DNA of 64,000 bases, from the NCBI GenBank assembly GCA_024639405.1, contig JAHEIL010000004.1, forward strand, positions 1 to 64,000, given 5' to 3'. Under the pieces are notes generated by a model that saw only the letters and a program-made list of their open reading frames with translations, was not told the origin of the DNA and ran no database searches. The first letter of the stretch is position 1. Every line of letters begins with the position of its first letter. Of this stretch, positions 57,415-64,000 are shown in pieces. Origin of the DNA: Crocinitomicaceae bacterium (GTDB taxonomy: Bacteria; Bacteroidota; Bacteroidia; Flavobacteriales_D; Crocinitomicaceae). Position numbers and translations under genes: made by a program.

Positions 57415-57711
57415 ATGGCAGCAAACATCATCACTAGCGAAGATCTAGAGCAATTCAAATGGGAATTCTTAGAACTAATCAAAGGACACATTGATCAACG
57501 ACTTGGGAAAGTAAAACCAGAAATCGAAGACAGACAGTGGTTAAAATCCCATCAAGTGCAACGCATGCTGGGTATTTCCCCAGGCACTTTGCAAACATTG
57601 CGCATCAATGGGACGATTCCTTACACCAAAGTTGGCGGAATTATCTTCTATGACAAGAAAGACATTCAGCAAATCATGGAGAAAAACATGAAGAACAAAC
57701 GGAATTACTAA
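57415..57711 (+). CDS. Helix-turn-helix protein (HTH_17, excisionase-like)
   Basis: The 98 residues have a helical N-terminus (EDLEQFKWEFLELIKGHIDQRLGK). A MerR/excisionase-type domain follows, with WLKSHQVQRMLGISPGTLQTLRINGTIPYTKVGGIIFYDKKDIQQIMEKN. Such proteins stand next to mobilisation and excision genes of Bacteroidota integrative elements. It is probably an excision or transcription factor. The 32-bp repeats upstream are possible binding sites. A second similar gene follows after 9 bases. Confidence 0.88.
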   Translation: MAANIITSEDLEQFKWEFLELIKGHIDQRLGKVKPEIEDRQWLKSHQVQRMLGISPGTLQTLRINGTIPYTKVGGIIFYDKKDIQQIMEKNMKNKRNY

Positions 57712-57720
57712 TCAAATAAA

Positions 57721-58017
57721 ATGCGCAACATGAAAAAATCAGTTCAACAAATGCAACAAATTCTTGAGGAAATGAAGACAATCAAAAAAAACCTTATTCC
57801 TCAAGAACCTGTCAAAGAAATTTGGATCGGTGGTATTGAAGTACAAACAACACTTTTCATTTCTGAAAGAACCTTATATCGTCACCGCAAATCAGGAAGC
57901 CTGCCCTACAGTCGCGTTCGAGGAAAAATCTATTACAAAAAATCCGATATCCGCGATTTGCTTGAGAAGAACTACCGCACCGAGCAACCAAAATGCACGT
58001 GCTGCAGCAATAAATAA
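57721..58017 (+). CDS. Second helix-turn-helix protein (HTH_17)
   Basis: The 98 residues share the layout of the previous protein: helices at the start (VQQMQQILEEMKTIKKNL), then WIGGIEVQTTLFISERTLYRHRKSGSLPYSRVRGKIYYKKSDIRDLLEKN. The C-terminus CTCCSNK is cysteine-rich. The pair looks like diverged tandem paralogues. Whether they form a heterodimer is not known. Both belong to the element backbone. Confidence 0.88.
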   Translation: MRNMKKSVQQMQQILEEMKTIKKNLIPQEPVKEIWIGGIEVQTTLFISERTLYRHRKSGSLPYSRVRGKIYYKKSDIRDLLEKNYRTEQPKCTCCSNK

Positions 58018-58122
58018 TTAAATCAAGAATCAATGACGATACTCACAATCATCACCCTTTGGTTTCGGAAGAGAATCAAAGATCGAAAAAACAAAAACTA
58101 AAATCCATTAAATCGGTTACCC

Positions 58123-58944
58123 ATGCAAGTTAATTACATAAAACATTTGGAAAGCATCCATTCAAAGTTTATTGAGGATAATCGAATTAACCCATTCCAT
58201 ATCAGTTTATACATGGCTTTATTCCACCTATGGAATTCGGCCATGTTTCCTGAACAATTAAGCATCGCCCGAACAGAAGTCATGCTGTTTTCAAAAATAG
58301 GTTCCGTCAATACCTATACGAAATGTTTGAAACAGTTACATGCTTTCGGTTACATCGAATACCTGCCTTCCAAAAATCCATACGTAGGAAGTTTGATTAA
58401 CATGTACAGAAGTGATAATAGTTCAAGTAATAGTAGTGATCATAGTATGTGTCTCAAAACTGATAATAGTTGTGATAATACAAGTGAAATACACATGAGA
58501 CCTTATATAAACTATTTAAACAATAATAAACAATTAAACAATATAAACTATTTAGGTGTCGATTTAAAAAAAATCGACCAACCAACAATTTCAAAAAGTA
58601 AAGATGAATTTTCTTCTTCTGATGAAAAAGTAATGAAAGTTGCAAAGAATGAAAATCCAGTTGAAAAACCAAAAAAGACAAAACCAATTGTTGCTTTGCC
58701 AACCATGGATCAAGTCACTGCTTTTTTTCAAGAAAAAAATAGATCGGAATTGGAAGCGCAAAAATTCTTCAATCATTTTGAATCCAATGGATGGCTTGTT
58801 GGTGGAAAAGCAAAAATGAAAAATTGGCATGCAGCAGCGCGCAATTGGATCTTGAATTCCGACAAATTTCAAAGCGGAATACAACAAAAAAAGCCCGGTG
58901 ATATTGCAGTCAATCAAAACAAAGATTACAGTGTACCCCTCTAA
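58123..58944 (+). CDS. Element replication-type protein with winged-helix N-terminus
   Basis: The 273 residues begin with KHLESIHSKFIEDNRINPFHISLYMALFHLWNSAMFPEQLSIARTEVMLFSKIGSVNTYTKCLKQLHAFGYIEYLPS, a winged-helix pattern used by replication and element proteins. A low-complexity, Ser/Asn/Lys-rich linker follows. The C-terminal FFNHFESNGWLVGGKAKMKNWHAAARNWI is shared with DnaD-like primosome proteins. It is followed by a DnaC-like loader gene, a typical initiator-loader pair. The function in replication is inferred. Confidence 0.75.
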   Translation: MQVNYIKHLESIHSKFIEDNRINPFHISLYMALFHLWNSAMFPEQLSIARTEVMLFSKIGSVNTYTKCLKQLHAFGYIEYLPSKNPYVGSLINMYRSDNSSSNSSDHSMCLKTDNSCDNTSEIHMRPYINYLNNNKQLNNINYLGVDLKKIDQPTISKSKDEFSSSDEKVMKVAKNENPVEKPKKTKPIVALPTMDQVTAFFQEKNRSELEAQKFFNHFESNGWLVGGKAKMKNWHAAARNWILNSDKFQSGIQQKKPGDIAVNQNKDYSVPL

Positions 58945-59071
58945 TCTTCAATCTTCAATCTTTAATCTTCATCCCGACGCTTCGGGATTCAATCTTGTAA
59001 TCTTCAATCTTCAATCTTCAATCTTCAATCTTTAATCTTTAATCTTCAATCTTCAATCTTCAATCTTCAAA
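58943..59071 (+). repeat. Heptamer tandem repeat AATCTTC, about 15 units, with inserted hairpin
   Basis: Units of AATCTTC (a few ending in T or G) run between the initiator-like and loader-like genes: four before and eleven after a hairpin ATCCCGA/TCGGGAT (58971-58988). They may be iterons, or simply slippage-expanded intergenic DNA. Confidence 0.85.
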
Positions 59072-59080
59072 TCCTGTGTT

Positions 59081-59707
59081 ATGTTAGAAAAATGTTATAC
59101 CCTAGTCGATGGTTATCGACAATTCGACTTCCTCACCTGTGTGCGCTACCTCAATCATCTGGGAAGGAAACAATACGGATCATCATTTTCCATAAACCCT
59201 GACGATCGTTTTATTCTCCACAAACTCATTTCCTATGCGATTGGTTCTGAAGAGCGGTGCCAGGAACATGGAATTGACCTTTCGAAAGGAATCTTGCTGA
59301 CGGGTCCAGTTGGTTGTGGGAAAACATCATTAATGACCTTGTTAAACGCATTCATATATCCAGATCAGAAGTATCAGGTGAAAAATACACGGCAAATTGC
59401 ATCCGAATTTCACAAGGAAGGTTTTGAAGTAATCCACAAATACGGTATGCGTGAAAAAGCTTTTTGTCTCGACGATTTAGGAATAGAACACACCATCAAA
59501 CATTTTGGCAATGAATGTAACACGATAGGTGAAATTTTACTCCAGCGTTACGAATTACAAGTTAATCAAAGAATCATTACCCATGCAACCACCAATTTGA
59601 ATGCTGATGAATTGGAGGCCATCTATGGAATCCGTGTCCGTTCACGTTTGCGTTCCATGTTCAACCTCATCTCTTTCCCCATTGATACGTGCGACAAACG
59701 CAAATGA
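59081..59707 (+). CDS. DnaC/IstB-like ATPase, helicase-loader type
   Basis: The 208 residues have an N-terminal helical part and an AAA+ fold: Walker A LLTGPVGCGKTSLMTLL, Walker B FCLDDLGIEH, sensor 1 IITHATTNLNADELEAIYG and an arginine-finger segment RVRSRLRSMFNLISFP. DnaC-like proteins load the replicative helicase, and related ones help transposases. The partner upstream is the replication-type protein. There is no transposase nearby, which makes IstB itself unlikely. Confidence 0.88.
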   Translation: MLEKCYTLVDGYRQFDFLTCVRYLNHLGRKQYGSSFSINPDDRFILHKLISYAIGSEERCQEHGIDLSKGILLTGPVGCGKTSLMTLLNAFIYPDQKYQVKNTRQIASEFHKEGFEVIHKYGMREKAFCLDDLGIEHTIKHFGNECNTIGEILLQRYELQVNQRIITHATTNLNADELEAIYGIRVRSRLRSMFNLISFPIDTCDKRK

Positions 59708-59730
59708 TAATCCCATATAATAATCAAAAA

Positions 59731-60384
59731 ATGAAAATAAAACTCACAAAACTCGACACGACAAAAATCGTTCAAGTTCGTTTAAAAGACACCCAATATT
59801 ACCAGGAAGAATTTCCCAAAAAACAAATCGTCATTCACCACACCGTTTCCAATGGCAATGCTAAAAATGTAATTGCATGGTGGGGAAAAACACCTGCTCG
59901 CATTGGTGTTGCTTTCGTTATCGATCGAGAAGGAATCATCCACCAATGTTTCAGTTCCAAACATTGGGCGCATCATTTAGGCATCAAGAGCGCGAAAAAC
60001 AAGCAATTGAATCAACAGTCCATCGGAATAGAATTATGCGCTTGGGGGTCATTAAAACGCAGTGATGTGAAGTCAGGCATCGTCGCGCAATTCACCTCAT
60101 CCACAGGAACTATCATCCCAAACGATGAGGTCATTGCATTAGAAAAAACATTTCGAGGTTCAAAGTACTACCAAAAATACACCGACAAACAGTTGAAAAC
60201 CCTTCAAATACTACTGAACTACCTATGCAAAACCTACAACATTCCAAACACCTACAATTCCGATATGTGGGATTATTCAAGGTCGGCCATAAATGGAAGT
60301 CCTGGAATATTTACCCACGTCAGCTATAGAAAAGATAAAAGCGATTGTTTTCCACAGGAGGAGTTGCTGGAAATCCTTGAGTAA
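59731..60384 (+). CDS. N-acetylmuramoyl-L-alanine amidase
   Basis: From the ATG at 59731, chosen for the A-rich sequence before it, this is 217 residues. An alternative ATG at 59704 overlaps the loader stop codon. Amidase_2 motifs are VIHHTVSNG, GVAFVIDREGIIHQCF, HWAHHLGI and SIGIELCAWG, with zinc-binding histidines in HHT and later. It cuts the bond between muramic acid and the stem peptide. No signal peptide or holin is seen. In integrative elements such an enzyme may open the wall for conjugation or be a phage relic. Confidence 0.85.
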   Translation: MKIKLTKLDTTKIVQVRLKDTQYYQEEFPKKQIVIHHTVSNGNAKNVIAWWGKTPARIGVAFVIDREGIIHQCFSSKHWAHHLGIKSAKNKQLNQQSIGIELCAWGSLKRSDVKSGIVAQFTSSTGTIIPNDEVIALEKTFRGSKYYQKYTDKQLKTLQILLNYLCKTYNIPNTYNSDMWDYSRSAINGSPGIFTHVSYRKDKSDCFPQEELLEILE

Positions 60385-60455: not shown

Positions 60456-61121
60456 TTAATTTTCTGCGTTTAGTTCCTTCTCAAATTCAATCAGGTCTAT
60501 TTGAAGCTGACTTTCATCAATGCTTTTTAGAATTTCAACAAGCTCGTGATGACATTTTTTGTATTTTAGTTTACGTTTACAAAAACAAAAATCATTTCGA
60601 GTAAGAGGAGTATCGTTTAACAAGTGTTTTAAAATCATAACACATTCTTCAACGCTATTGATTTTCAAATCTTCTGCGTAGTACTGTTTAATTCCCTCAA
60701 AGTGATGCTTATACTCACCATTTGCAAACTTACCTTTTTTTTCGAAATAGACTTGATTAACAAAAAAAGGATAAATTTTTTCTCTTGTGAAGGTAAGTAA
60801 ATTGATTCCCCTTGCTTTTAATAACAACATTTTATGAGTTATGTCTAAGCAACAGATACCATGTTCGTCAATATGATGATCTTCTATCCTTTTAATCTTT
60901 TCAGATGTTTCTAATACTATTGGTATACAAAAAGGATATTGAAAGGGCACTATGATTATAATTGAAAACGTATCCCAATAATCACCAACGCTATCACAAA
61001 TATCTATTTCACCAGTAATCAACCAAGCATTATTAGCTTGGTTGATGTTTTTGTGACTTAGTTTTGGAAAAAATTCATTCAAAGATTTGAAATCTTTTTC
61101 AAATAAATTTGTGTTTTTCAT
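60456..61121 (-). CDS. E2-like (ubiquitin-conjugating fold) protein with C-terminal SEC-C zinc motif, Pycsar accessory gene
   Basis: The 221 residues have a UBC-like core: WLITGEIDICDSVGDYWDTFSIIIIVPFQYPFCIPIVLETS, then the block DHHIDEHGICCLDI. This last block parallels the E2 active-site line HPN...GxICLDI; Cys91 (of Cys90-Cys91) would be the catalytic residue. The C-terminus has CxC-x8-CH at Cys179, Cys181, Cys190 and His191, the SEC-C zinc motif. No E1 or JAB gene is adjacent. It is the last gene of the operon, 5 bp after the cyclase gene. E2 enzymes in short type II CBASS act on the signal-making enzyme; a similar role here is inference. Confidence 0.75.
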   Translation of the reverse strand: MKNTNLFEKDFKSLNEFFPKLSHKNINQANNAWLITGEIDICDSVGDYWDTFSIIIIVPFQYPFCIPIVLETSEKIKRIEDHHIDEHGICCLDITHKMLLLKARGINLLTFTREKIYPFFVNQVYFEKKGKFANGEYKHHFEGIKQYYAEDLKINSVEECVMILKHLLNDTPLTRNDFCFCKRKLKYKKCHHELVEILKSIDESQLQIDLIEFEKELNAEN

Positions 61122-61126
61122 ACAAA

Positions 61127-62131
61127 TTAAAAATTGAAATAAGGTTTACTTTTTTCAGCTAAAGGAATTAGATTTTGTGGATTTCTATTGTTGTAAACCA
61201 AATGGTTATGAGTTTTCATTATCAATTTCCCATTGTTGTCCGTTGCAATAATATCAAGCGTTTTTAAAAATTTAAACCATTCAAAATCATATTGAGTATA
61301 TCTAAATCCCTTTTCTGGAATTTGGAAAATATAGCGTTTTTTATGATCTACTAATCTAATGCAAACAGGAGTGAAAAATTGATCTAGTATTAAAGCTTCA
61401 CTTTTTATATTATCACCAATTACGATTCCATTATTATCAGCATAGCTTTGCATTTTGGCAGCTAAACTTGTATGTAGGCTACAAGTCGTAACTTCACTTA
61501 TTTCTCCAATGCCAGCTAATGACCAAATCACATCAGAATCATAACCAAGGTCAATTCCAATTCTAGTGTAAATATTTTCAACACCTTGCTCATTTAAAAG
61601 CTCTTTCAAATCATTCTTCATGAAATATGAAAATAATGCTGCGCTTTGTAAAGCCCTTTCAACGGCTATTTTTTTATTTATATTTTTTCCACCAAAGTAA
61701 ACAAATAAACCATCTCCTTGTAATCGATGAACATATCCACCAAATGCCAAACAAGTATGTATAGCAGCTTTTTGAATAATATTTGAAATTACCATTACAG
61801 TTAGAGGATCATATCTTTTAAAAAGATTTGTTGATCCTTTAATATCTATAAACATAGAAACAATGTAATGGTTTTCAACTCCTTGACTTTCTTTTAAGTC
61901 AGCGAAATCAGGATGAAGTCCAGTGGGTTGATTAAAATTTGGTGTAACCCCATTTTTTAGAGCTAATTCTGTCATTGCTGGCAATAACTGATTGTCTTGA
62001 AATTGGGCTCTAACTTCTTCTAGTAGTATACTTTCATTTAATTCACCTGTTGCGCTGTAGTATCTTTCCTTAGCAACGCCTTTATTCATCACTTGACGAA
62101 TGTTTTCAAAATATGTATTGTACAAATTCAT
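61127..62131 (-). CDS. pycC: Class III nucleotide cyclase of Pycsar type (PycC-like)
   Basis: The 334 residues have the guanylate/adenylate cyclase fold at about 90-250. Metal-binding Asp96 lies in VSMFIDIKGSTNLFKRYDP and Asp140 in HRLQGDGLFVYFG. Pycsar cyclases make cCMP or cUMP when phage infects the cell. Which base is used cannot be read by eye. The neighbouring three-helix membrane protein is the expected effector, 6 bp upstream. The C-terminus ends in PLAEKSKPYFNF, with no glycine for E1/E2-type ligation. The gene might also be an ordinary adenylate cyclase, but context argues for Pycsar. Confidence 0.85.
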   Translation of the reverse strand: MNLYNTYFENIRQVMNKGVAKERYYSATGELNESILLEEVRAQFQDNQLLPAMTELALKNGVTPNFNQPTGLHPDFADLKESQGVENHYIVSMFIDIKGSTNLFKRYDPLTVMVISNIIQKAAIHTCLAFGGYVHRLQGDGLFVYFGGKNINKKIAVERALQSAALFSYFMKNDLKELLNEQGVENIYTRIGIDLGYDSDVIWSLAGIGEISEVTTCSLHTSLAAKMQSYADNNGIVIGDNIKSEALILDQFFTPVCIRLVDHKKRYIFQIPEKGFRYTQYDFEWFKFLKTLDIIATDNNGKLIMKTHNHLVYNNRNPQNLIPLAEKSKPYFNF

Positions 62132-62137
62132 GTTTGA

Positions 62138-62632
62138 TTATTTTAAATTTTTTAGTATTAATATTATTAATGGTATGTAAATGAATATCTGTATTGCGAA
62201 CAAATTTCCAACAACATATAGTTTCTTGAATTTGCTTTTCAAACCTGAGGCAAGCTTAAATGTTTGCGTTCTTAAGTCTTCTATCTCTTCATCTTCGGAC
62301 TCATCAGCTGATTTTTTCTTGAAATTCGTTTCTCCCATACTCTCAATAGATTGAAAAAACAATAAAGAATTTGTTTCATCCGTTAAATAAGGTCTTGAAG
62401 CTAAAACTAAGATTAACAGATTTATCAAGCCTAGAATCATCGATATAATCAATAAAGTTGGAATTACCCAGTACCAATAAGTTAAATCCATAATCGTTGT
62501 GTAACTTGCAACCAAACCACCCACAATAAACAAGTTCAAAGTCAAATAGACATTACTTTTATTATTTACACTGTCAAAATAATGGTCATAACGTGCTATA
62601 CAAAATTTTAATCTTTCTTTTTCACGATCCAT
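62138..62632 (-). CDS. pycTM: Pycsar membrane effector (PycTM-like)
   Basis: The 164 residues begin with a soluble segment EKERLKFCIARYDHYFDSVNNKSNVYLTLNLFIVGG that is the hallmark of the Pycsar transmembrane effector family. Three membrane helices follow at about 28-47, 52-78 and 139-161. The effector is thought to sense cyclic pyrimidine mononucleotide and disrupt the inner membrane, killing the infected cell. It lies between the DUF2188 gene (3 bp) and the cyclase gene (6 bp). Confidence 0.85.
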   Translation of the reverse strand: MDREKERLKFCIARYDHYFDSVNNKSNVYLTLNLFIVGGLVASYTTIMDLTYWYWVIPTLLIISMILGLINLLILVLASRPYLTDETNSLLFFQSIESMGETNFKKKSADESEDEEIEDLRTQTFKLASGLKSKFKKLYVVGNLFAIQIFIYIPLIILILKNLK

Positions 62633-62635
62633 AAC

Positions 62636-62857
62636 CTAACCCTTAATTTTACTCGGATCATTCCCATAACTGTTCTTTTCACGAATCTTCCCATCCCGAC
62701 CATGAATGATCACTTCTGATTTTTGATTCATAGCGATTTTGATCGCTGCATTTTCCGCTTCTTTTTGAGTTGCAGTTACTTTAGTAGCTTTTTCGTTGCC
62801 GGCTACTTTAGCTGCCCATCCTTGTGGGTGCTTAACGACGTGTACATTCTTTCCCAT
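62636..62857 (-). CDS. DUF2188-domain protein
   Basis: The start at 62857 gives 73 residues: MGKNVHVVKHPQGWAAKVAG, then EKATKVTATQKEAENAAIKIAMN and a tail EVIIHGRDGKIREKNSYGNDP. The DUF2188 pattern is clear. The 18 codons upstream in frame are not needed. Its function is unknown. It heads the Pycsar operon with only 3 bp to the effector gene, so it may be a small regulatory or structural partner. Confidence 0.9.
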   Translation of the reverse strand: MGKNVHVVKHPQGWAAKVAGNEKATKVTATQKEAENAAIKIAMNQKSEVIIHGRDGKIREKNSYGNDPSKIKG

Positions 62858-63069: not shown

Positions 63070-63151
63070 GTCAAAGATACATGTAATCTTTTAACAAAAC
63101 AAATTTATTAAAATTTGAAGTGTTCTACAAATAAATTTATCAACATTTTTG

Positions 63152-63180
63152 TTGATAAGTTAATTTTTTACCTATTTTTG
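63152..63180 (+). promoter_or_regulatory. Promoter of the type I restriction locus
   Basis: TTG at 63152-63154 and a TATTTTTG -7 box at 63173-63180 are 18 bases apart. The hsdS ATG is at 63205. Confidence 0.6.
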
Positions 63181-63204
63181 AAGCGCATAACAAATTCAAA
63201 GTGT

Positions 63205-63774
63205 ATGGAAAAAGTATTTGAAAGTATCGCTGAATTTCAATTTGGATATTATGATAAGCCAGTAGATTCAGGTGCTGTGTCCTATATACAAGTTAAAGAT
63301 TTTGATGCTAACAATCAGTTTTCAAATGAAACTAGTGCATTTTTAAATATTGATGAAAAGTCTAGAAAACATCTTTTGAAGGATGGTGATGTGATTTTTG
63401 TGGCAAAAGGATTCAGGAATTTTGCATGGACATATAAAGAATCATTTGGACCTGCAATTGCATCATCAATCTTTTTTGTCATTAAAGTTGATACGTCAAA
63501 AATACTTCCTGAATTTTTGACTTCTTTACTAAATTCTGCGGCATATCAGCAGCAATTTCAGCAGTTAGGCGCTGGTAGTTCTATTCCATCAATTCGAAAA
63601 TCCGAATTAGAAGCAATTAAAATACAAGTTCCTCCATTGGAGCTTCAAAGGAAAACGGTCACAATCAATGAACTCTATTTAAAAGAATTGCAATTGACGA
63701 ACAAAATCATTGATGAAAAACAAAAGTATTACAACAATATTATTAACAAACTAATTACTCAAGTACATGTCTAA
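63205..63774 (+). CDS. hsdS: Half-length type I restriction specificity subunit (HsdS)
   Basis: The start at 63205 gives 189 residues; upstream codons cross the promoter. One target recognition domain (ESIAEFQFGYYDKPVDSG ... LKDGDVIFVAKGFRN) is followed by IPSIRKSELEAIKIQVPPLELQRKTVTINELYLKELQLTNKIIDEKQ, the conserved spacer coiled coil. Normal HsdS has two such units and about 400 residues. A single unit could work as a dimer on a palindromic site. The gene precedes and overlaps hsdM by 8 bp, unlike the usual M-S order. Confidence 0.85.
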   Translation: MEKVFESIAEFQFGYYDKPVDSGAVSYIQVKDFDANNQFSNETSAFLNIDEKSRKHLLKDGDVIFVAKGFRNFAWTYKESFGPAIASSIFFVIKVDTSKILPEFLTSLLNSAAYQQQFQQLGAGSSIPSIRKSELEAIKIQVPPLELQRKTVTINELYLKELQLTNKIIDEKQKYYNNIINKLITQVHV

Positions 63775-64000
63775 ATTAACTCAAAAAGAAATTAATCAAA
63801 CTGTCTGGAAAGCATGTGACTCGTTTAGAGGAGTTCTTGATCCTACACAATACAAGGATTATGTTTTAACAATGCTTTTTGTTAAATATGTTTCAGATGT
63901 GTGGAAGGATAAACATGCTGTTTACAAAGAAAAGTACGGAGATGATACTGTTAGGATTGAACGAGCTTTGAGAAATGAACGTTTTCAAGTTCCAGATAAC
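63767..64000 (+). CDS. hsdM: Type I restriction-modification methyltransferase HsdM, N-terminal part
   Basis: The frame starts at ATG 63767, inside the end of hsdS, and runs to the window edge: 78 residues seen. INQTVWKACDSFRGVLDPTQYKDYVLTMLFVKYVSDVW is the typical HsdM N-terminal helical region. The SAM-binding NPPY domain lies outside the window. The subunit methylates adenine at the site chosen by HsdS. hsdR may follow farther right. Confidence 0.92.
   Translation, partial: MSKLTQKEINQTVWKACDSFRGVLDPTQYKDYVLTMLFVKYVSDVWKDKHAVYKEKYGDDTVRIERALRNERFQVPDN

What the first reader, a model, noticed from the sequence alone, without database searches (positions are those of the whole stretch)
60456..62857. 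Pycsar operon carrying an E2-like/SEC-C accessory gene
Sequence: four tightly spaced minus-strand genes (gaps of 3-6 bp) encode DUF2188, a PycTM-like three-helix effector, a class III cyclase with Asp96/Asp140, and a protein with a UBC-type core. The core shows a DHHIDEHGICCLDI line plus a C-terminal CxC-x8-CH SEC-C motif. Knowledge: Pycsar is normally described as cyclase plus effector, and E2-only accessory genes are known from short type II CBASS. Inference: this is a Pycsar variant with conjugation-like control of the cyclase or effector. Against a simple CBASS copy, the cyclase ends in ...PYFNF rather than glycine, so another residue or a thioester/protease-like use is needed.
Basis: partly seen in the sequence, partly recalled or inferred. 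Interest (0 to 1): 0.9.

Follow-up and report, generated by a model that had tools for sequence, protein, structure and literature searches.

The report
Pycsar immune operon with E2 enzyme
A bacterial anti-phage signalling operon carries a stand-alone relative of ubiquitin-conjugating enzymes, and its signal-making cyclase ends in a short tail that also ends unrelated proteins encoded beside the same enzyme, which suggests that the enzyme acts on that tail.

Summary
Four packed minus-strand genes encode DUF2188, a PycTM effector, a Pycsar cyclase (PycC) and an E2-like protein with SEC-C cysteines. AlphaFold gives the last a UBC fold (pLDDT 93; Tsg101 UEV Z 12.2; Serratia CBASS E2 Z 9.9). The pairing recurs: PycC lies directly upstream in 22 of 22 loci of a scan seeded with Pycsar-linked E2s, and in 6 of 13 family genomes holding an E2-SEC-C gene; in the other 7 a CBASS cyclase lies there.

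Proteins next to E2-SEC-C share a tail, [KR]P[WYF] within the last 15 residues: 18 of 21 PycC, 15 of 17 CD-NTases, 1 of 1 MBL-fold protein. Without E2-SEC-C it is 0 of 14, 0 of 20 and 0 of 3. In the CD-NTase tree 5 of 6 independent contrasts agree, none disagrees (p 0.06). The published PycC structure 8JSF has the tail too.

Best reading: a CBASS-derived, E1-free E2 clips and ligates PycC through this tail. Ligation is inferred; docking or trimming alone are not excluded. Tal 2021 and Yan 2024 could not be read, so novelty is provisional.

The parts
62636..62857 (-). DUF2188 protein (73 aa from the ATG at 62857), first gene of the operon; optional, found in 10 of 22 related loci
   Evidence: PF09954 3.8e-21; PADLOC PDC-S16
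62138..62632 (-). PycTM / 2TM membrane effector (164 aa)
   Evidence: PF18967 1.7e-7; PDLC00700 2.9e-51; found in 21 of 22 related loci; in the 22nd, L038, only what looks like its 3' end can be read
61127..62131 (-). PycC class III pyrimidine cyclase (334 aa)
   Evidence: PDLC00767 1.9e-140; 8jsf 3.9e-81; D96, D140 and the CTP-specificity trio F94/R136/Q138 present
61130..61168 (-). C-terminal tail of PycC, residues 322-334 (IPLAEKSKPYFNF); K329-P330-Y331 at 61139-61147
   Evidence: P330 and A325 invariant in 18 of 18 PycC after a variable linker; pLDDT under 50 for 309-318, 323-325 and 327-334 in a model of mean pLDDT 73; tail shared with CD-NTases and one MBL protein
60456..61121 (-). E2-like (UBC fold) protein with C-terminal SEC-C cysteines (221 aa)
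   Evidence: PDLC00833 4.1e-78; pLDDT 93.1; Tsg101 UEV Z 12.2; Serratia CBASS E2 8hsb Z 9.9
60849..60851 (-). codon of Cys91, likely catalytic cysteine of the E2
   Evidence: Cys in 41 of 41 aligned E2-SEC-C proteins
60546..60599 (-). SEC-C region, residues 175-192 (C179, C181, C190, H191)
   Evidence: 16.7 bits, below the cut-off of 20.4; the four residues invariant in 18 of 18 Pycsar-linked E2s

Best explanation
This is an 'E2-only' Pycsar system. Shown: PycC, PycTM and an E1-less UBC-fold enzyme form one conserved operon, and PycC ends in a tail with a [KR]-P-[YWF] signal that follows the E2-SEC-C enzyme across unrelated partner proteins. Inferred: the E2-SEC-C enzyme recognises the tail, cleaves the few residues behind it using Cys91 (a thioester formed by transpeptidation, so no E1 and no ATP would be needed), and ligates PycC to a lysine, most likely on another PycC or a sensor. 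This would hold the cyclase off, or prime it, until a phage infects. Active PycC would then make cCMP, which opens the PycTM membrane effector and stops the cell.
For: UBC fold with an invariant Cys. PycTM-PycC-E2 order conserved. In the two PycC surveys the 7 best-scoring Pycsar cyclases (E up to 1.7e-62, the window included) all have an E2-only gene directly downstream (5 E2-SEC-C, 2 short E2); the 6 lower-scoring ones (E 4.4e-51 to 1.2e-29) have none within about 1.5 kb. Tail [KR]P[WYF] in the last 15 aa, after dropping copies over 80% identical: PycC with E2-SEC-C 18 of 21 (P[WYF] 21 of 21), PycC otherwise 0 of 14; CD-NTase with E2-SEC-C 15 of 17, otherwise 0 of 20; background 0.27% of 15-aa windows. 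CD-NTase tree: 5 of 6 independent contrasts agree, 0 disagree, 1 does not differ. The motif lies wholly upstream of any in-frame ATG, GTG or TTG of the E2 in 17 of 21 PycC and 4 of 17 CD-NTase pairs, so overlapping genes do not force it there. EaPycC 8JSF ends in YKPYL, as far as the alignment shows (residue 341 of 342). [quoted passage not shown]
Against: No enzymatic step was observed. The residue after the aromatic varies, so no cleavage point can be named. The best structural match is Tsg101 UEV, a catalytically dead E2 variant that binds proline-containing peptides (inactivity recalled), which fits docking as well as catalysis. The canonical HPN motif is replaced (H-I/V-D/S/N). The single E2 with a solved CBASS complex (Serratia, 162 aa) is hit by a short, SEC-C-less E2 and not by the E2-SEC-C profile, so that work transfers only by analogy. 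L084, a CD-NTase with E2-SEC-C, lacks the motif (NPRQYSNK). The tree contrasts alone give p 0.0625.
Confidence: 0.6

Rival explanations
1. Docking only: the UBC domain binds the KP[YWF] tail without covalent chemistry, as a UEV domain binds PTAP peptides, and tethers or inhibits PycC.
For: Top structural matches are Tsg101 UEV, several with bound PTAP-type peptides (Z up to 12.2); Pfam's only UBC-type hit is UEV; the tail is short and proline-centred and poorly ordered in the model.
Against: Cys91, His83 and His139 are each invariant in 41 of 41 homologues; UEV domains lack the catalytic Cys (recalled). Full-length type II CBASS, with a Cap2 E1-E2, conjugates the cyclase C terminus (PMC10097602 passages).
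Confidence: 0.2
2. Protease only: the E2 trims the PycC tail with Cys91 and this switches the cyclase on or off, with no ligation to a second protein.
For: The aromatic of P[WYF] sits 2 to 8 residues before the end, leaving a short piece to clip; no E1-like gene stands out among the ORFs beside the operon (by eye).
Against: Full-length type II CBASS with its E1-E2 Cap2 joins the cyclase C terminus to lysines (PMC11153139 and PMC10097602 passages); trimming alone would not need a UBC fold.
Confidence: 0.13
3. Passenger: the E2 gene is a neighbour from the same mobile element with no functional link to Pycsar, and the tail resemblance is chance or forced by overlapping start codons.
For: The operon sits among genes of mobile-element kind. 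The KPYGY tails and 7 of 8 CD-NTase short-E2 pairs examined overlap the E2 reading frame.
Against: PycC before E2 in 22 of 22 loci; Fisher p 2.9e-7 (PycC) and 1.5e-8 (CD-NTase), not corrected for kinship; 5 of 5 informative contrasts in the CD-NTase tree; 12 of 12 PycC pairs with at most 4 nt overlap keep P[WYF].
Confidence: 0.04

Closest known systems
Pycsar (Tal et al. 2021, recalled; clade E PycC, PMC11224242)
   Same: Class III pyrimidine cyclase beside a PycTM effector; PycC is 3.9e-81 to EaPycC 8JSF and keeps its metal and CTP-specificity residues.
   Different: [quoted passage not shown] here a third, E2-like gene and a matching cyclase tail are conserved.
Type II-short (E2-only) CBASS; Serratia CdnG-E2 (PDB 8hsb; Yan et al. 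2024, recalled)
   Same: E1-less E2 directly downstream of an immune nucleotide cyclase; fold match Z 9.9; CD-NTases beside E2-SEC-C share the tail.
   Different: The cyclase is an unrelated class III PycC. The Serratia E2 is 162 aa and is hit by a short-class E2 without SEC-C.
Full-length type II CBASS (Cap2 E1-E2 plus Cap3)
   Same: Cyclase C terminus is the conjugated element (PMC10097602 and PMC11153139 passages).
   Different: The E2 here stands alone at 221 aa, no E1- or JAB-like gene stood out among the ORFs beside the operon (by eye), and the tail is not a terminal Gly or Ala.
PADLOC models PDLC00833 (E1-E2) and PDLC00872/00865 (E2)
   Same: The protein family is already modelled as defence-associated.
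   Different: The model names give no Pycsar link or mechanism; where the PDLC00833 members came from is not stated in the output.

Membership tests
Pycsar | class III cyclase of the PycC family with two metal-binding Asp | tested here: met
   PDLC00767 1.9e-140; D96 and D140, 18 of 18
Pycsar | adjacent PycTM or PycTIR effector | tested here: met
   PF18967 above its cut-off (32.1 vs 27.2 bits); PDLC00700 2.9e-51
Pycsar | makes cCMP or cUMP and stops phage | not testable with these tools
   residues F94/R136/Q138 match EaPycC F100/R142/Q144, so cCMP is predicted
E2 / UBC-fold enzymes | UBC fold | tested here: met
   pLDDT 93.1; UEV Z 12.2, UFC1 Z about 10.5, 8hsb E2 Z 9.9; Foldseek best E 1.4e-3
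E2 / UBC-fold enzymes | catalytic Cys at the UBC position | tested here: met
   C91 in 41 of 41
E2 / UBC-fold enzymes | HPN motif before the Cys | tested here: not met
   H83 invariant but followed by I/V and D/S/N in 18 Pycsar-linked E2s; a PDB title speaks of UFC1's TAK motif in place of HPN
E2 / UBC-fold enzymes | forms a thioester and transfers its cargo | not testable with these tools
   needs protein
Type II-short CBASS | CD-NTase cyclase | tested here: not met
   the gene directly upstream of the E2 is PycC
Type II-short CBASS | stand-alone E2 next to the cyclase, no E1 | tested here: met
   E2 of 221 aa with PADLOC E2 hits; neighbouring ORFs read by eye
Full-length type II CBASS | E1-E2 Cap2, and cyclase ending in Gly or Ala | tested here: not met
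   221-aa E2 alone; PycC ends PYFNF
SEC-C motif | CxC-x8-C[HC] | tested here: inconclusive
   16.7 bits, below the cut-off of 20.4; residues invariant in 18 of 18

The most novel reading that the evidence does not exclude
E2-SEC-C enzymes read a portable C-terminal signal, KP[WYF], that evolution has put on at least three unrelated proteins (class III PycC, CD-NTases, an MBL-fold protein), and they ligate them without an E1 or ATP, much as sortase does. The immune cyclase itself then serves as the ubiquitin-like modifier. A second, short E2 class may read a different tail (H-x-F-Y-G-like), so that tails act as a code naming the enzyme.
Probability: 0.45. Interest if true: 0.9.

Novelty: new variant of a known kind. 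Interest (0 to 1): 0.75.

Why it matters
It joins two immune families through one control module. If E2-only enzymes govern both CBASS CD-NTases and Pycsar PycC through the same tail, then protein ligation is a general way to set immune cyclases, not a peculiarity of cGAS-like enzymes. The tail gives a direct test: move KP[WYF] onto an unrelated protein and ask whether the E2 acts on it. It also points to a tail in a published structure (8JSF) that the passages I read of its paper do not discuss, and predicts an E2 gene beside it.

Tried and rejected
Rejected: the E2 as a passenger gene. Rejected as a full account: the tail as a by-product of overlapping start codons. In 17 of 21 PycC pairs the motif lies before any in-frame ATG, GTG or TTG of the E2. 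For CD-NTases this holds in 4 of 17 (L020, L022, L128, L131); one search had said 6 because it took the annotated starts of L127 and L129. Of pairs with at most 4 nt overlap, 12 of 12 PycC and 4 of 5 CD-NTases keep P[WYF]. The KPYGY and KPYGN tails (L023, L024, L025, L078) overlap the E2 start, and so do 7 of 8 short-E2 CD-NTase pairs and both short-E2 PycC pairs, so the second 'tail code' stays weak. Its regular expression was made after seeing the tails.

Led nowhere: E2 and cyclase searches of viral contigs and of phage records with the E2 found none. The profile A1 in 395 Bacteroidota genomes matched 270, but only 10 places score like E2s (the window plus L076-L084, E 8.2e-26 or better); the other listed matches cover only the SEC-C end or little more, many inside frames of about 1000 aa, as in SecA (list cut). 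No sequence of the Serratia CdnG tail could be read.

Sampling limits: the 22 loci were found with patterns made from Pycsar-linked E2s, so 22 of 22 is not an unbiased rate; some are near copies, and 5 (L027, L028, L029, L044, L046) have the contig lengths of genomes already counted. The less biased counts are 6 of 13 and 7 of 13 PycC (G633's three places L062-L064, E 8.5e-11 and weaker in frames of over 1000 aa, left out). Two of the 6 PycC without E2 reach 43% and 41% identity, but over part of the query only. In one search, 10 rows over 80% identical were dropped. Left out beforehand: L119 (CD-NTase fused to a short E2), L121 (copy of L113), L130 (E2 behind an IS30 transposase), L135 (cyclase not in the stretch), and repeat fetches of the same places. 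'Other' CD-NTases had no E2-only gene within about 1.5 kb; their own enzymes were not typed. All 17 CD-NTases with E2-SEC-C match PADLOC oligonucleotide-cyclase models (best E 6.2e-79 or better). Plasmid records opened: 8 of 136 with a PycC match, 9 of 12, 6 of 6, 6 of 11, 0 of 23, 4 of 24 MBL records, 3 of 3.

Literature: searches of an open-licence library showed, in what they listed (25 of 103 papers, 17 of 18, 30 of 154), no title that joins Pycsar with an E2. Passages read: PMC11153139, PMC10097602, PMC11224242 (its section 6 whole), PMC10952713, PMC13373217, PMC12657218, PMC9117128. Tal 2021, Yan 2024 and one review are not held; what I say of them is recalled, save Yan's title, seen in a reference list.
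Full report
What is there. The window lies in a 2.63 Mb genome of 52 contigs. At 60456-62857 on the minus strand four ORFs follow each other with gaps of 3, 6 and 5 bp: DUF2188, a PycTM/2TM effector, a PycC cyclase and a 221-aa protein. Family scans name the first three clearly, and the cyclase is close to EaPycC, the solved clade E cytidylate cyclase (8jsf, 3.9e-81). The fourth has weak Pfam hits to UEV and SEC-C, both below cut-off, but a nearly full-length hit to PADLOC's E1-E2/E2 models (4.1e-78 and weaker).

The fourth protein is an E2 by fold. AlphaFold on an alignment of 18 own and related sequences gave pLDDT 93.1 and pTM 0.85. VIA-align ranks Tsg101 UEV first (Z 12.2, 2.5 A over 115 residues), then UFC1 (about Z 10.5), and the Serratia CBASS E2 of the CdnG-E2 complex (8hsb, Z 9.9, 3.7 A over 132 residues). 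Foldseek's own E-values are modest (best 1.4e-3), but its listed rows are entries of UBC or UEV domains. Across 41 E2-SEC-C proteins, Cys91, His83 and His139 are invariant, while Cys90 is Cys in 28. The HPN motif is replaced by H-I/V-D/S/N in the 18 Pycsar-linked ones.

The neighbourhood recurs. In 200 genomes of the window's family, 13 hold an E2-SEC-C relative. In 6 of the 13 the order is PycTM-PycC-E2; in the other 7 the protein before the E2 is a CD-NTase (PADLOC oligonucleotide-cyclase models). A scan of a collection of 84,980 species genomes with patterns from Pycsar-linked E2s gave 22 loci in Bacteroidota such as Flavobacterium, Sphingobacterium, Mucilaginibacter, Algoriphagus, Aquimarina and Dyadobacter; all 22 have PycC directly before the E2, 21 a PycTM, and 10 a DUF2188. 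Five of these loci are the same genomes as in the family search, and some are near copies. A Chryseobacterium plasmid has the same trio.

PycC surveys give the complementary count. Searching with PycC in 395 genomes of the phylum and 395 of the class (overlapping sets) and reading about 1.5 kb of flank gives 13 Pycsar cyclases, the window included. The 7 best-scoring (E up to 1.7e-62) all have an E2-only gene directly downstream: 5 E2-SEC-C, and 2 (L052, L058) a shorter E2 of 168 and 132 aa without SEC-C, found with an HMM made from CBASS short E2s (3.4e-36, 1.1e-22). The other 6 (E 4.4e-51 to 1.2e-29) are longer proteins (422-467 aa) with no E2 in view. In a tree, the E2-linked PycCs fall on one side of a branch (100/99), with the E2-SEC-C ones a group inside it (96/96). 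In the E2 tree the Pycsar-linked E2s are one group (98/94) set among CBASS-linked ones. This reads most simply as one passage of the E2-SEC-C module from CBASS to Pycsar, but both roots are only midpoints.

The tail. Listing the C termini of the proteins directly upstream of the E2-SEC-C genes in hand showed a shared signal: PycC ...SKPYFNF, NKPYFGF, SKPFYGFIKEN, NRPWLKRS; CD-NTase ...QKPWCRF, AKPFCNVR, PKPYGY, KSKPWQRC, and in other phyla PKPWGDTY (Cytobacillus), TKPWRN (Ligilactobacillus), AKPWKNI (Aliarcobacter), PKPWFKQ (Vibrio gigantis); and an MBL-fold protein of a Runella plasmid, NAKPWQRG. After removing copies over 80% identical, [KR]P[WYF] in the last 15 residues is present in 18 of 21 PycC, 15 of 17 CD-NTases and 1 of 1 MBL with E2-SEC-C, against 0 of 14 PycC, 0 of 20 CD-NTases and 0 of 3 MBL without it; the background is 0.27% of 15-residue windows. 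With the looser P[WYF] the counts are 21 of 21, 16 of 17 and 1 of 1 against 1 of 14 (L058), 0 of 20 and 1 of 3 (an upstream PY in L124), and the background is 3.3%. The Fisher values (2.9e-7, 1.5e-8) ignore kinship.

Controls on the tail. Kinship: on a CD-NTase tree built without the last 30 residues, E2-SEC-C use changes at least 6 times; of 6 independent contrasts the tail agrees in 5, disagrees in 0 and does not differ in 1 (sign test p 0.0625). L021 (KPFCNVR) sits among short-E2 cyclases ending HRFYGE, and L080 (RPWGKAM) pairs with L113 (SRSAK). The PycC tree adds one more switch in the same direction by my reading; no test was run on it. Overlap: the motif lies wholly before any in-frame ATG, GTG or TTG of the E2 in 17 of 21 PycC and 4 of 17 CD-NTase pairs; among pairs with at most 4 nt overlap, 12 of 12 PycC and 4 of 5 CD-NTases have P[WYF]. 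So for most PycC overlap cannot be the cause; for CD-NTases it can be excluded in the minority only. Conservation: in 18 PycC, A325 and P330 are invariant although the preceding linker (306-321) is much less conserved (0.48) than the tail (0.71) or the core (0.70). Most of 309-334 has pLDDT under 50, in a model that is only fair overall (mean 73). The published EaPycC aligns to the tail as YKPYL; the passages of its paper that I read do not speak of it, and 'ubiquitin' does not occur in the main text.

Mechanism. Jenson et al. found a conserved terminal Gly or Ala for CD-NTases with full-length Cap2 and Cap3, and no conservation in other architectures (PMC10097602 passage). Kruger et al. [quoted passage not shown] From memory, Yan et al. 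2024 report that the Serratia E2 processes the cGAS C terminus and joins it to lysines. The most economical account here is the same chemistry without an E1: Cys91 attacks a peptide bond near KP[YWF], keeps PycC as a thioester, and passes it to a lysine. Steps shown: operon, fold, invariant Cys, tail and its link to the enzyme class. Steps inferred: recognition, cleavage, thioester, acceptor, effect on cCMP, defence. The CTP-specificity residues of EaPycC (F100, R142, Q144) are matched by F94, R136, Q138, so cCMP is the predicted signal.

How sure, and how new. That the gene is an E2-like enzyme working with PycC is close to certain from co-occurrence; that it acts on the KPY tail is likely; that it ligates PycC is the best of three readings (about 0.6), with docking (0.2) and trimming alone (0.13) behind it. 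I file it as a new variant of a known kind: Pycsar with the E2 module of type II-short CBASS. PADLOC already models the protein family. The searches of the open-licence library listed no title on it, but some lists were cut, and the founding Pycsar paper and the single-E2 CBASS paper could not be read, so a mention there or in their supplements cannot be excluded.

Noticed in passing
L066:2917-5368 (Runella slithyformis plasmid pRUNSL03): An MBL-fold protein, an E2-SEC-C and a 236-aa protein without Pfam or PADLOC hits form an apparent operon; the MBL protein ends NAKPWQRG. A third context for the E2-SEC-C family.
   Followed up: partly
L124:3498-4529, L125:3504-4598, L126:3495-4568: MBL relatives on Paenibacillus and Hymenobacter plasmids, with a ThiF (E1-like) gene next door or one gene further, end RKPMGGQ, KQPMGTEHE and DKPMG: a different, glycine-bearing tail on the same scaffold.
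   Followed up: partly
L052:1390-2917, L058:1492-2947: Two PycC operons carry a short E2 without SEC-C; their cyclases end KHRFHYGK and KHNFHYDPFK, like CD-NTases beside short E2s (HRFYGE). The tail overlaps the E2 start codon, so it may be forced.
   Followed up: partly
L119:943-2421: A CD-NTase-like protein of 492 aa that also matches the short-E2 HMM (1.6e-35): probably a fusion.
   Followed up: no
window 57415-60384: Two HTH_17 genes, an AAA ATPase-like gene (below cut-off) and an Amidase_2 gene beside the operon; similar genes flank the operon in L016 and L017, there with genes that look like recombinases by eye, so it is probably cargo of a mobile element.
   Followed up: partly
window 63115-64000: A type I restriction specificity protein (Methylase_S, 2.5e-8), divergent from the operon and followed by what looks like more of a type I system; L017 has a similar neighbour.
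   Followed up: no
L130:2042-4341 (Carnobacterium maltaromaticum plasmid): An E2-SEC-C gene directly behind an IS30-family transposase and before an S-4TM pore-forming effector, with no cyclase annotated in the stretch.
   Followed up: no
8JSF chain A (EaPycC): The published Elizabethkingia PycC aligns to the tail as YKPYL, which predicts an E2-SEC-C gene beside it.
   Followed up: partly
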